64,000 nt of DNA from Planctomycetota bacterium (GTDB taxonomy: Bacteria; Planctomycetota; Phycisphaerae; Phycisphaerales; UBA5793): positions 81,157 through 145,156 of the forward strand of contig CAUJHZ010000076.1 of NCBI GenBank assembly GCA_963205185.1, read 5' to 3'. Shown one piece after another: positions 20,277 to 24,424 of the stretch. Numbering within the stretch: the stretch's first letter is position 1; every line of letters starts with the position of its first letter. The position numbers and the translations under genes were made by a program. The notes under the pieces are model-generated. The model saw nothing but the letters and a program-made list of their open reading frames with translations, did not search any database and was not told the DNA's origin.

Positions 20277-21227
20277 TCAGAAGTCGTCCGTCGGACCGCC
20301 GAGCAGTTCCTCCAGGTGCGCCGCGATGATCTCTGCCCGCCGCTCGCGCCGCTGCTGCACTTGCGTTCGCAGAAACTCCAGTCGCTGCTCGAGCTGGGCC
20401 AGATCGCGCTCGCGCAGCTTCTGGCGAACGTCAAAGTGCTCGCCAACGAGTTCCTGCAACTGGCCGCGGGTCGATTCCATCTTCGCGGTGTCGTTCTCAC
20501 GGCGGGCCGCGGCGAATTCGCCGGCAAGGCGGCTCGTTTCGTGCGCGAAGTGCCGGTCCTTGATGTTCAGTTCGTAGAGTTCGGGGTCGTTGCGCTTCAG
20601 TTCCACCGCGCCCATCCACCGGCGCAGATCGTTCTGGATCCGGCCGCGCACGACATCCGGGTTGGCCTGCATCGCGGTCGAAAGACGGGTGTAAAGCGCC
20701 TCGTCGAAGTCCTTGATGACCTCCATGACTTCCGCGAGCAATTCGTCGGTGAGATCGGGAACCGGACCGTCGTAGTACTGGCCGACGCGCTGGCGGAACG
20801 GGGGCATCTCCTCCGAAAGACGCTCATCCATTCCCGGCGGCCCCGGCGGCCGATCACCGGGTGGAACATCGCCCTGCAGCGAACGGCCGGGCCGCATCGG
20901 GCGATCGCCGGCCGCACCCTCGCCGGGCGCTCCTCGGCGCAGCCCCTCTCCCCGCTGGTCGCCCAGCGCGCGCATGAGGCGCTCGCCGACGCGGCCCTCG
21001 ACGCGATTTCCATCGATGAACACTTCGTATCGGCCGTCGCCGCTGGGCCGAAGTGTGATCTGCACTTCGCCGGCTTCGCCGCCCCGCCGGGTTTCCGCCG
21101 GCTGCGTCGGCTGTTCGGTCTGCCGCTGCGCAGCCGGCCGTTCCTGGGCCGGCGCCGTAAGCGCCAGCGCGGTTGCCGCGACGCCAGTCAATCCCATGCC
21201 CCACATTCGCTTGGTTCGCACGTGCAT
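20277..21227 (-). CDS. exported helical protein in sigma-factor operon
   Basis: 316 residues from the ATG at 21227, with CGGGAG upstream. A signal peptide ends near APAQ. A Pro/Gly/Arg-rich low-complexity region (about 30-140) precedes an alpha-helical C-terminal half (about 150-310) rich in Glu, Arg, Gln and Leu and predicted to be coiled coil (QLEQRLEFLRTQVQQRRERR). The layout recalls periplasmic CpxP/Spy-like or zinc-resistance helical sensors, but no motif proves it. It lies about 60 bp after the membrane protein and sigma factor genes on the same strand and may be the envelope-stress output or sensor of that operon. Confidence 0.7.
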   Translation of the reverse strand: MHVRTKRMWGMGLTGVAATALALTAPAQERPAAQRQTEQPTQPAETRRGGEAGEVQITLRPSGDGRYEVFIDGNRVEGRVGERLMRALGDQRGEGLRRGAPGEGAAGDRPMRPGRSLQGDVPPGDRPPGPPGMDERLSEEMPPFRQRVGQYYDGPVPDLTDELLAEVMEVIKDFDEALYTRLSTAMQANPDVVRGRIQNDLRRWMGAVELKRNDPELYELNIKDRHFAHETSRLAGEFAAARRENDTAKMESTRGQLQELVGEHFDVRQKLRERDLAQLEQRLEFLRTQVQQRRERRAEIIAAHLEELLGGPTDDF

Positions 21228-21288
21228 GCTCCCGGCCGTCTTTGGCCCGTTGCAGTCGGCGGCCCGTGGCCGCCGACCCCCACTTGAA

Positions 21289-21825
21289 TCAGAACGAGTC
21301 GAGATCTTCCCAGAGACTCGACGTCGCGGTCTGCAAATCACTCGCCAGCGATCCGTAAGCCCACTCATCGCCCCGGCTCACGAGCGAATCCACCGACGCG
21401 GTGATGTCGCTCATCAACGTGCTCGCGGCCACGCTGAACTCGCTTTCAAACTCTTCGTCAACGGCCGGCGTCTCCTCAGCAGGCTCGACGTTGGCCAGTT
21501 GCGGATCCTGGTAGTTGTTCCGCTGCGCCTGCACGCTGAACAGCATCGCGATGGTGATGGCCAGCACGACTACGGCCGCCAGCGCCGCCATGATCGGCCA
21601 GGCCGACCACGACCGAGCCGGCAGCATCGAAGGGCCATCTTCATCAATGAGCCGCAACGGTGGCTGCGCGCGCGCATCAGCGCGGGACAGGTGCCGGCGA
21701 CTGGCCTCAAAGATGCGGCCCGCCACAAGCGACTCTTCGTTACCGGGGGCGTGCATCCGGATCAGTTGCTGGTCGATCTGCTCGATCCGGGCATCAGGAG
21801 TTTCAGGAATGTATCGTTCAGTCAT
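21289..21825 (-). CDS. single-pass membrane protein, putative anti-sigma factor
   Basis: 178 residues. A cytosolic N-terminal ~75 residues, one transmembrane helix (about 76-98, AALAAVVVLAITIAMLF) and an acidic, Ser-rich outer domain. It begins inside the sigma-factor gene (ATGA overlap at 21822-21825). A sigma factor translationally coupled to a single-pass membrane protein is the standard sigma/anti-sigma layout. No HxxxCxxC zinc anti-sigma motif is visible, so the assignment rests on context and topology. Confidence 0.7.
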   Translation of the reverse strand: MTERYIPETPDARIEQIDQQLIRMHAPGNEESLVAGRIFEASRRHLSRADARAQPPLRLIDEDGPSMLPARSWSAWPIMAALAAVVVLAITIAMLFSVQAQRNNYQDPQLANVEPAEETPAVDEEFESEFSVAASTLMSDITASVDSLVSRGDEWAYGSLASDLQTATSSLWEDLDSF

Positions 21826-22418
21826 GGTGTTCCCGCCTTTCCGGCAGGTCGCGGTGCCGTCTGATCCCCTGGCGAATTCTCGAGAAGGTCGCGCAGTTTG
21901 CGCAGCGCGCGGTGCTGGCGGGCGAGCACGGTTCCGAGCGGTTCGTCAAGAAGATCGGCCATTTGCTTGAAACTGAGCCCGCCGATGTAGCGGTACTCGA
22001 TGATTTGCCGATCTGCGGCGGACAGTCGCTCAAGCGCCGCGCGCAGGGCGAGGCACTCCTCGTCGTCGCGCGGCAGAAATCCGTTGCGCGAGGGCGCCGG
22101 TCGCTCATCCAGCGCCGCCTGATCGACCGCGACAGCCTGCCGTCGCCGCCGCCGCATCTCGTCGCGAAGTCGATTGACCGCGATGCGAAAGATCCATGCT
22201 TCGAACTTGCCCTGCTCGACATAGCCGTCGTGTCCCGTCAACTTCGCCGCTACGGTGCAGAAGACGCTCTGGGCGATTTCCTCCGCCAGTTCCGCATCGC
22301 CGCACTGCGACTTGAGAAGGCCGTAGACGCGAGGCGCGTACTGGTCAACGATTGCCCGCCAGGCGCTCTGGTCACCGCGCGAGGCCAAATCCAAGGTGGT
22401 GTCCAGCGCCTCGTCCAT
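21822..22418 (-). CDS. ECF-family RNA polymerase sigma factor
   Basis: 198 residues from the ATG at 22418, with GGAAAAGG upstream. Region 2 spans about residues 10-85 (YAPRVYGLLKSQCGDAELAEEIAQSVF, then FEAWIFRIAVNRLRDEMRRRRR) and region 4 about 120-180 (ALERLSAADRQIIEYRYIGGLSFKQMADLLDEPLGTVLARQHRALRKL). A region-3-free architecture and this length define ECF sigma factors. It directs transcription of a small regulon, probably including its own operon. The downstream membrane protein overlaps by 4 bp. Confidence 0.93.
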   Translation of the reverse strand: MDEALDTTLDLASRGDQSAWRAIVDQYAPRVYGLLKSQCGDAELAEEIAQSVFCTVAAKLTGHDGYVEQGKFEAWIFRIAVNRLRDEMRRRRRQAVAVDQAALDERPAPSRNGFLPRDDEECLALRAALERLSAADRQIIEYRYIGGLSFKQMADLLDEPLGTVLARQHRALRKLRDLLENSPGDQTAPRPAGKAGTP

Positions 22419-22537
22419 GCCTTTTCCAATGGGTTCAACGTCGCGCCAAGCCGAATATTGCCCGATTCCGCGGCCCCGGCCGCGCCGCCCGGGGCCGGAT
22501 AATTCCGCACAACGATAGTCTTCGCAAGGTCTGACCA

Positions 22538-23218
22538 ATGCTCCACCGCGTCCACCCGCTTCGCCCACCGCTGGCCTCTTTGCTGCTGCTGTGGCTCGTC
22601 CTGCTTGGCGCCTGTTCTTCGAGCGGACCGCAGGCTCCCGCCGAGTGGATCAATCGCCAGAGCGCCGCAGTGGATTTGGCTGTGTTCGACGCGGCACAGC
22701 CGGCGCTGCAGGTATTGATCTGCCAGGGGCAGGTGCACGGCACGCACACTGGAGTGCGCGTGCTCCAGACCGACGAGCCGGTGGTGTTCTGGGATCCCGC
22801 CGGGCAGTTCGGCATCAACCGCAGCGAGGTCCAGCGCAGCCGAGATGTGATCGTTCAGGGCGCTCCGAGCATGGCTGAATACGTGCACTGGCGCCTGGAG
22901 GGCGCTGAGGACTCGGCTGTGGCGCTCTATGAGTGGAAACTGACCGACGAGCGCGCCGCGGAACTCGCCGCCATTCTCACGCACGACGGCGCGGTGCTCG
23001 AAGGCGAAGAGGAGTTCGAGACGGCCACGGTCGGCCTGTTCTGCTGCCAGGCGGTGTGCAGGTTTCTGGATCGTTTCGCGCGCGACGAGATGACCATTCC
23101 GCAGCTCTGGTTTCGCCCGGAGCATCTTGGCGAGCACCTGTGGTCGCAGCATCCGGATCGCGTGGGCCTGTTCCATGATGACGGTCGGATCGAGGTATTC
23201 GCCTCGCCGGCGCGCTGA
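22538..23218 (+). CDS. lipoprotein, possible permuted papain-fold domain
   Basis: 226 residues. A hydrophobic leader ends at the lipobox LLGAC, so it should be lipid-anchored. The mature part carries a His in GTHTGVRVLQ followed ~120 residues later by LFCCQAVCRFL. A His-then-Cys order within beta and alpha segments is what permuted NlpC/P60 or YiiX-like papain-fold proteins show. That reading is tentative; no close family is recognised. If right, it would be a cell-wall or acyl/amide hydrolase at the envelope. It is divergent from the sigma factor gene, with a ~120-bp shared upstream region. Confidence 0.65.
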   Translation: MLHRVHPLRPPLASLLLLWLVLLGACSSSGPQAPAEWINRQSAAVDLAVFDAAQPALQVLICQGQVHGTHTGVRVLQTDEPVVFWDPAGQFGINRSEVQRSRDVIVQGAPSMAEYVHWRLEGAEDSAVALYEWKLTDERAAELAAILTHDGAVLEGEEEFETATVGLFCCQAVCRFLDRFARDEMTIPQLWFRPEHLGEHLWSQHPDRVGLFHDDGRIEVFASPAR

Positions 23219-23647
23219 GTCGATTCGAACGCGCCCACAAAAAAATGCATGTGCCGTTTCCCTCCGCGGGGCGGGCGGGGCTCGTGCTGCAGCGCGCCCA
23301 AGATGCTGATCTGGAAGACGTTGCGCGCGCCAGTGCCTTGAACTGCCGGGAAAAGAGGCCCCTGGCTCTTACCGGACGTTTTTCACAACTTTTGCAACTT
23401 CAGTTATTTCCGCGGCTTTCGGAGTCGATATGCACTGGCATTGCGGGAAAACCGCAATCGAATGGTGGATTCACTGGCGTCAGGAGCAGACTGGGCCGCG
23501 GGGTGGATGGATCGATCAGGCAATGCGATGCAGTGTGCTTCGCTCAGCGCCACAGACTGATCCGACCCGACAGTCCTCCGGACATTCGCTAACCAGGCAC
23601 AGCAAGGTCGAACGAATGACCGGTGCCGCATGACTTGAGGAGTCATC
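23219..23647 (+). other. gene-free leader region upstream of the basic protein gene
   Basis: No convincing protein is seen over 429 bp. The stretch 23360-23420 is clearly more AT-rich than its surroundings. A possible promoter is TTCACA (23382-23387), 17 bp, TATTTC (23405-23410). A small perfect hairpin follows at 23440-23458 (ATTGCGG, loop GAAAA, CCGCAAT). A strong ribosome site GAGGAG lies at 23637-23642, 5 bp before the ATG at 23648. A long transcribed leader of ~200 nt is therefore possible. Confidence 0.4.
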
Positions 23648-24313
23648 ATGAGCAAGACGTACAACTTTGGTCGCACCTTCAAGACGAGCGTTCAGAACGG
23701 CAAGACGCCCTACAGCGTCGTCGAGAACATCGCCAGCAAGTATCGCAAGACCCCCGCTTTCGTGTGGGCCAACCTGAAGAAGAACGGCTACGCGTTCTGC
23801 ACGAAGTTCAACGGCAAGTCGTTCTGGTTCCCCACCTTCTCCTGCAAGACCAACAGCAAGAACTGGAAGAAGACGGAAGCGACCATCTGGCCGCAGTTCA
23901 TCCAGTACGCGCTGCAGCAGGGCTGGATCACCCCCGCCCAGTGCTACAACTGGACGACGAACCAGATCTGCTATCACATCAGCAACTGCTTCAGCAAGTG
24001 CTACAGCAAGCCGGGCAACTTCAATCCCAACACCCGGAACTACAAGAACAACGTCCCCGGGCAGAACGGCAACTGGACGACCAACGGCACGTGGAACAAC
24101 ACCACCAAGTCGAACACGGGCACGAAGAAGAACCGCAAGTCCCGCAAGGCGACCGGTAAGACCACGCGCACCTACAAGAGCAAGACCCGCAAGACCAACA
24201 AGACCCGCCGCACCAACACCGGCCTGCGTCTCGTCGGCGCCACGGGTCGCACCCGCCGCTACGGCAGCACGCGTCGCTACGGCACCCGCCGTTACGCTCG
24301 CCGCGCCGCCTGA
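23648..24313 (+). CDS. extremely basic Lys/Arg/Asn/Thr-rich protein, possibly nucleic-acid binding
   Basis: 221 residues with only two acidic residues (both Glu) and no Asp. The first ~115 residues look folded: helix-like SVVENIASKYRKTPAFVWANLKK, then a hairpin-like NGYAFCTKFNGKSFWF, aromatic residues and six cysteines (including ICYH and NCFSKCYSK). Residues ~120-155 are Asn/Thr/Gly-rich, ~155-195 are Lys/Thr/Arg repeats, and the end is RRYGSTRRYGTRRYARR. Tails of this kind occur in histone H1-like, Hc1-like or other nucleic-acid-compacting proteins. There is no signal peptide. A very strong ribosome site and a strong terminator suggest high expression. Codons are almost uniformly AAG, AAC and ACC. 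No family is recognised. Confidence 0.85.
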   Translation: MSKTYNFGRTFKTSVQNGKTPYSVVENIASKYRKTPAFVWANLKKNGYAFCTKFNGKSFWFPTFSCKTNSKNWKKTEATIWPQFIQYALQQGWITPAQCYNWTTNQICYHISNCFSKCYSKPGNFNPNTRNYKNNVPGQNGNWTTNGTWNNTTKSNTGTKKNRKSRKATGKTTRTYKSKTRKTNKTRRTNTGLRLVGATGRTRRYGSTRRYGTRRYARRAA

Positions 24314-24348: not shown

Positions 24349-24358
24349 TCGAATCTCG

Positions 24359-24389
24359 GACAGCCGCGTTCATGATGAACGCGGCTGTC
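24359..24389 (+). terminator. strong rho-independent-like terminator
   Basis: GACAGCCGCGTTCAT followed, after one base, by its exact reverse complement gives a ~14-bp stem with a minimal loop, then TGGCTTTT. It ends the basic protein transcript and faces the convergent lipoprotein gene. Confidence 0.8.
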
Positions 24390-24424
24390 TGGCTTTTGAC
24401 GCCCGGTTGTCCGCGCAGGGTGCG

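What the first reader, a model, noticed from the sequence alone, without database searches (positions are those of the whole stretch)
23648..24313. Highly basic, acid-free protein with a strong ribosome site: possible new nucleoid or RNA-compacting protein
The 221-residue protein has only two Glu and no Asp, a folded aromatic/Cys-rich N-terminal half, and a C-terminal tail that passes from Asn/Thr/Gly to Lys/Thr/Arg to Arg/Tyr/Gly. Its GAGGAG site, AT-rich upstream region, uniform codon choice (AAG, AAC, ACC) and strong terminator suggest high expression. Tails like this occur in histone H1-like and Hc1-like proteins, but the N-terminal part fits none of them. The six cysteines also allow a metal or disulfide core. 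It could condense DNA, bind RNA or act in a spore-like or resting state.
Basis: partly seen in the sequence, partly recalled or inferred. Interest (0 to 1): 0.78.

Follow-up and report, generated by a model that had tools for sequence, protein, structure and literature searches.

The report
Histone-H1-like protein of Phycisphaerales bacteria
The gene is real and belongs to a so far undescribed protein family found only in one order of planctomycete bacteria; its predicted DNA-binding (winged-helix) domain, nearly acid-free basic tail and codon use stronger than that of ribosomal genes suggest an abundant protein that coats or compacts DNA, built like an unrelated counterpart of histone H1.

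Summary
Window 23648-24313 (+) encodes 221 aa with 2 Glu, 0 Asp and 45 Lys/Arg (pI 10.9). It is a true gene: one copy in all five genomes of its genus examined and in 31 of 400 sampled genomes of its order, always with ATG, a GGAG ribosome site and (29 of 30) a terminator hairpin within about 50 nt. Its codon bias exceeds that of every ribosomal-protein gene compared in five genomes, and its synonymous divergence is lower than theirs in two of three genus comparisons: very high expression is inferred. No Pfam, NCBIfam, PDB, plasmid or phage relative was found; one PHROG matches weakly. AlphaFold predicts a winged helix (residues 8-62) plus three helices. The tail varies in length and sequence but stays basic, and 29 of 30 members end R[RK][AV]A (one ARAA), after a [YFL]x[FYL] motif. 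Cysteines are not conserved, so a metal or disulfide core is out. The genome has its own HU and Hc1, so this is something extra. Best reading: an abundant architectural DNA-binding protein working like linker histone H1, not a detectable member of that family. DNA binding is inferred, not shown. The C-terminus resembles ClpXP C-motif-2 tags (speculative).

The parts
23648..24313 (+). coding sequence of the 221-residue basic protein (P0001), stop included
   Evidence: orthologues
23669..23833 (+). predicted winged helix, residues 8-62 (H8-16, H21-31, H36-45, strands 49-54 and 57-62 joined by a tight turn; family motif SLxKAGxCxRQKFNGQWxYW)
   Evidence: AlphaFold2 mean pLDDT 86.8; nearly all listed PDB matches are winged-helix or HTH domains, best Z 4.8 over 58 residues
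23855..24001 (+). three-helix segment, residues 70-118, with conserved W81, G92, TP95-96 and Q106; possibly dimerisation (inference)
   Evidence: no convincing fold match
24014..24115 (+). Asn/Thr/Gly-rich linker, residues 123-156, specific to the genus
   Evidence: alignment
24116..24310 (+). basic tail, residues 157-221: 25 Lys/Arg, no acidic residue; length and order vary in the family while composition is kept
24224..24235 (+). conserved hydrophobic motif in the tail (LRLV here; YKFP in most of the order), residues 193-196
   Evidence: present in 30 of 30 members
24299..24310 (+). C-terminal RRAA, residues 218-221 (family: RRAA 16, RKAA 7, RKVA 6, ARAA 1)
   Evidence: resembles ClpXP C-motif-2 ends listed in PMC9775585
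23637..23642 (+). Shine-Dalgarno GAGGAG, 5 nt before ATG; GGAG present in all 30 members
23368..23647 (+). 5' leader/promoter region with strongly conserved blocks in five same-genus genomes
   Evidence: no Rfam match, no clear covariation
24357..24391 (+). terminator hairpin followed by GCTTTTG; stem kept by paired changes within the genus
   Evidence: similar hairpins in 29 of 30 members

Best explanation
The protein is an abundant architectural DNA-binding protein. A small basic winged helix (residues 8-62) docks on DNA with little sequence specificity, the three-helix segment (70-118) probably mediates self-association, and the disordered Lys/Arg/Thr/Ser tail (about 157-221) neutralises phosphate and bridges or condenses duplexes, as the C-terminal tail of histone H1 does. 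It is made in large amounts from its own single-gene transcript, alongside ordinary HU and Hc1. Shown here by sequence: gene reality, conservation, tail composition, codon bias, gene unit. Predicted by model: the winged helix. Inferred: DNA rather than RNA as ligand, dimerisation, compaction, abundance. Speculative: the near-invariant R[RK][AV]A end is a ClpXP-type tag allowing regulated removal.
For: Orthologues in all five genus genomes and 31 of 400 order genomes, single copy each. Winged-helix order H-H-H-strand-strand at mean pLDDT 86.8, with listed PDB matches nearly all winged-helix or HTH domains, most of them DNA-binding. Conserved basic positions in or next to the winged helix: K31, K34, K45, K53, K67 basic in 20-25 of 25. 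Tail averages 32% Lys/Arg and about 0.1% Asp/Glu in 30 members although its sequence is not conserved. CAI above all 14-15 ribosomal genes in each of five genomes; dS 0.31-0.46 against 0.27-0.96 for ribosomal genes and about 0.5-1.3 for real neighbouring genes. GGAG before ATG in 30 of 30 and terminator in 29 of 30. Hc1 and HU are separate genes in the same genome.
Against: No binding, localisation or expression data. Structural matches are weak (Z below 5), and a basic winged helix may bind RNA or protein. The gene is accessory: 22 of 121 sampled genomes in family f3 have it, and close relatives lack it, so it is not a core chromosome protein. CAI partly reflects residue composition, although amino-acid-matched simulation still leaves it high.
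Confidence: 0.6

Rival explanations
1. An abundant RNA-binding or ribosome-associated protein: the basic winged helix and tail bind rRNA or mRNA rather than DNA.
For: Composition and codon bias resemble or exceed ribosomal proteins; winged-helix matches include ribosomal and mRNA-binding domains (SelB 2pjp, 30S protein in 9fhl).
Against: Absent from most relatives, even close ones, unlike a ribosomal component; not in a ribosomal or RNA-processing operon; most winged-helix matches bind DNA.
Confidence: 0.18
2. A sequence-specific transcription regulator of the winged-helix kind with an unusually basic tail.
For: MarR-, ArsR-, DtxR- and MecI-type winged helices are among the best structural matches; helices after the wing could dimerise.
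Against: Extreme codon bias and low dS are unusual for a regulator; no conserved adjacent target operon across families; the acid-free tail is maintained by composition, not sequence.
Confidence: 0.1
3. A polyphosphate- or granule-organising protein like AlgP, whose basic tail binds polyphosphate.
For: AlgP of Pseudomonas aeruginosa, a histone H1-like protein, facilitates even spacing of polyphosphate granules (PMC9239181, title and abstract).
Against: No link to polyphosphate genes was seen near the gene; AlgP was not compared directly.
Confidence: 0.07

Closest known systems
Eukaryotic linker histone H1 (winged-helix globular domain plus basic tail)
   Same: Small winged helix (predicted) followed by a long disordered basic tail of variable sequence and kept composition.
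   Different: No sequence match to Pfam models of that family; extra three-helix segment; near absence of acids even in the folded part; near-invariant R[RK][AV]A end; bacterial, without nucleosomes.
Chlamydial Hc1 (PF07432) and Hc2
   Same: Basic bacterial proteins; Hc2 also varies in tail length (165-237 aa, PMC2848022).
   Different: No Pfam match to either; has a folded domain predicted as winged helix; tail is Thr/Arg/Lys/Ser-based. The same genomes carry a separate Hc1 gene.
HU proteins with basic tails (such as actinobacterial HupB; from memory)
   Same: Architectural domain plus disordered basic tail.
   Different: Domain is not HU; the genome has two separate HU genes, and those read in this order lack such a C-terminal tail.
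AlgP of Pseudomonas aeruginosa
   Same: Described as a histone H1-like bacterial protein (PMC9239181).
   Different: No direct comparison was run; the family searches showed no known relative.
ClpXP C-motif-2 substrates (MuA RRKKAI, YbaQ RAKKVA, PaaA HARKVA; PMC9775585)
   Same: Basic residues directly before a small-residue C-terminus; six family members end RKVA exactly as PaaA does.
   Different: Degradation not shown; the likeness is only four to six residues long.

Membership tests
Winged-helix superfamily | helix-helix-helix followed by a beta hairpin (wing) | tested here: met
   Predicted order H8-16, H21-31, H36-45, E49-54, E57-62, pLDDT about 90 there; matches nearly all winged-helix or HTH, but Z at most 4.8, rmsd 2.9 over 58 residues. 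Prediction only.
Linker histone H1 | sequence match to the Pfam linker histone model | tested here: not met
   Not among the matches of 25 members to Pfam at E up to 1.
Linker histone H1 | H1-type winged-helix globular fold | tested here: inconclusive
   Winged helix predicted, but no H1 globular domain among the listed structural matches.
Linker histone H1 | long basic disordered tail with almost no acidic residues | tested here: met
   Mean tail composition 32% Lys/Arg, about 0.1% Asp/Glu.
Linker histone H1 | binds and compacts DNA | not testable with these tools
   needs purified protein
Chlamydial Hc1 (PF07432) | match to the Hc1 profile | tested here: not met
   No match; a different locus of the same genome does match above cut-off.
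Chlamydial Hc2 | match to its Pfam profile | tested here: not met
   Not among Pfam matches.
HU/IHF (PF00216) | match to the HU profile | tested here: not met
   No match; the HU hits lie at other places.
AlgP-like proteins | H1-like repeats and a role at polyphosphate granules | not tested
   No direct comparison with AlgP was run.
ClpXP C-motif-2 substrates | basic residues next to a small-residue C-terminus | tested here: met
   29 of 30 end R[RK][AV]A, one ARAA; motif list read in PMC9775585.
ClpXP C-motif-2 substrates | degradation by ClpXP depends on that end | not testable with these tools
   ClpX is present in all eight genomes searched; degradation untested.

The most novel reading that the evidence does not exclude
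A bacterial counterpart of linker histone H1 that arose independently: a winged helix joined to a disordered basic tail, made at levels above ribosomal proteins, and removed on demand by ClpXP through its near-invariant C-terminus, giving some planctomycetes a switchable chromatin layer on top of HU and Hc1.
Probability: 0.25. Interest if true: 0.8.

Novelty: new variant of a known kind. Interest (0 to 1): 0.6.

Why it matters
Planctomycetes are known for condensed nucleoids (described for Gemmata obscuriglobus, PMC3440768, and Calycomorphotria hydatis, PMC7716856, abstracts), and which proteins are responsible is, as far as I know, largely open. This family gives a concrete single-gene candidate in one order, with closely related genomes that lack it as natural controls. 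If it compacts DNA, the plan 'winged helix plus basic tail' would have arisen in bacteria as well as in eukaryotes. A conserved C-terminal tag would make removal of such a protein directly testable.

Tried and rejected
Metal or disulfide core: rejected, cysteines 0-16 per domain with no column conserved throughout. Shadow ORF: considered because low dS with moderate dN is also the signature of overlapping frames (one search shows such cases); rejected by protein-level homology and by stops in the other frames among homologues. Phage or plasmid origin: no relative in viral contigs or plasmids, one chance-level match in phages (E 10); a weak PHROG match (phrog_6058, unknown function, E 0.0005-0.003) covers only residues 24-55 and occurs in 2 of 25 members. 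Defence system: no PADLOC match. The only match outside the order, G239 (E 4e-4), is a short HTH-like stretch in an unrelated protein. Hairpin around the ribosome site (23630-23646): conserved but no more stable than shuffled sequence (z 0.73). Structured leader RNA: no Rfam match and no clear covariation. Fold of the helical segment alone: no convincing match. H1 globular domain among structural matches: not listed, which excludes nothing. A broad scan of genome contigs with the alignment failed for lack of conserved stretches; with the single protein it found only the genus.

Full report
Observation. The ORF at 23648-24313 (+) encodes 221 residues with two Glu, no Asp, six Cys and 45 Lys/Arg. 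A GAGGAG site lies 5 nt before the ATG, and a strong hairpin (24357-24391) follows the stop, with only a short T-run. Codon choice is extreme (AAG 26/26, AAC 25/26).

It is a real gene. All four other genomes of the genus that were searched carry it (99-66% identity), one genome of the same family has a 40% relative, and profile searches found it in 31 of 400 genomes of the order, in 22 of 163 genera, one copy each. The window's genus includes Phycisphaerales bacterium UBA5793. In samples of the class and phylum the family was not found outside the order; the one weak match there is an unrelated HTH stretch. Thirty full proteins were read and aligned: 155-262 residues, pI 9.8-12, one to seven acidic residues in the whole protein. 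Other reading frames contain stops.

Domain. Positions F11, G18, L43, F54, N55, P96 and Q106 are invariant in 25 domains. AlphaFold2 on that alignment gives mean pLDDT 86.8 and the order helix 8-16, 21-31, 36-45, strands 49-54 and 57-62, then helices 70-91, 96-101 and 104-118. Foldseek gives no match at E below 0.001, but its best matches are mostly winged-helix regulators and condensin ScpB; VIA-align places residues 1-66 on winged-helix or HTH domains almost throughout (MYST acetyltransferases, MntR, LexA, FtsK gamma, Z-alpha, DtxR), best Z 4.8 at 2.9 A over 58 residues. These are modest values for a small domain; a shared fold does not show function. The helical segment alone has no convincing match. 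Pfam, NCBIfam and PDB sequence searches give nothing significant.

Tail. After the domain the sequence is not conserved, but the composition is: Thr 19%, Arg 18%, Lys 15%, Ser 13%, Asp plus Glu about 0.1%. Two short elements are kept: a [YFL]x[FYL] motif (YKFP in most members) and the end R[RK][AV]A in 29 of 30, ARAA in one. The ClpXP C-motif-2 substrates listed in PMC9775585 end RRKKAI, RAKKVA, HIKKAS, RVKHPA and HARKVA; six members end RKVA like the last. ClpX is present in all eight genomes searched. Whether this is a degradation tag is untested.

Expression. With 14-15 ribosomal-protein genes of the same genome as reference, the gene's CAI is 0.828, 0.826, 0.839, 0.906 and 0.762 in five genomes, above every ribosomal gene (leave-one-out maxima 0.754-0.787). 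The same protein written with ribosomal codon frequencies averages 0.721, and 9 of 5000 draws reach the observed value. Synonymous divergence (dS) is 0.34, 0.46 and 0.31 against G001, G002 and G004. Against G001, two ribosomal genes (0.27 and 0.30) are lower; against G002 and G004 it is lower than all ribosomal genes listed; real neighbouring genes show about 0.5-1.3 (low-dS rows there that lie opposite known genes are shadow frames). dN is moderate, and the tail changes faster than the domain in most pairs. Very high expression is therefore inferred; no transcript or protein data were available.

Gene unit and context. GGAG precedes ATG in all 30, and 29 of 30 have a terminator hairpin starting 23-49 nt after the stop, so it is probably transcribed alone. 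In family f3 it lies between a TPR-cyclophilin gene and an ACT_8 gene, next to a menaquinone-biosynthesis-like gene and near ruvC (the RuvC name rests on its IDPGLxxTGYG start, from memory). In several f3 genomes without it the cyclophilin and ACT genes face each other directly, 59 nt apart in G908, the closest relative tested. The gene is thus cleanly gained or lost as one unit, and is accessory (22 of 121 f3 genomes). In its own genus it lies beside a putative lipoprotein gene and an ECF sigma factor gene, an arrangement kept down to 30% and 55% protein identity in G005. A 280-nt leader is strongly conserved in the genus without evidence for a structured RNA.

Interpretation. The plan, a small basic winged helix plus a long acid-free tail at high inferred abundance, is that of histone H1. 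No sequence relationship to H1, Hc1, Hc2 or HU was found, and the same genome has its own Hc1 and two HU genes. 'Works like H1' is therefore the best-supported mechanism; 'is an H1' is not supported. The step from fold and charge to DNA compaction is inference; RNA binding is the main rival.

Novelty. A new protein family, as far as the searched libraries and collections go; a new variant of a known kind (basic-tailed architectural proteins). A literature search for winged-helix nucleoid proteins with linker-histone comparison returned only a general review; the library holds open-access papers only.

Noticed in passing
window 23368-23647: A 5' leader with several blocks invariant in five same-genus genomes (for example CTTACCGGACG, GGAGCAGACTG, TGGATGGATCGA, GACATTCGC); function unknown, no Rfam match, no clear covariation.
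   Followed up: partly
L102, L104, L110, L111, L114, L115: In f3 genomes lacking the gene, the TPR-cyclophilin and ACT_8 genes are direct convergent neighbours: an empty site that shows clean gain or loss.
   Followed up: yes
L029:1300-1500: One family member has an additional basic extension of about 65 residues before the domain, so it has basic tails at both ends.
   Followed up: no
G000:C74:10991-11152 and G000:C76:50664-50930 (outside the window): The same genome carries a separate Hc1-family gene (PF07432) and two HU genes.
   Followed up: partly
L096 (G750), about 5 kb from the family gene; similar position in G016 (L095): An HU-like protein with a basic N-terminal stretch (KRKTKRKTKTKTRRK) is encoded near the family gene in G750; an HU match lies at a similar distance in G016.
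   Followed up: partly
window 21825-22568 (-): An ECF-type sigma factor gene next to two conserved genes without Pfam match (20280-21368 and 21292-21825, both -), kept beside the family gene in the genus.
   Followed up: no
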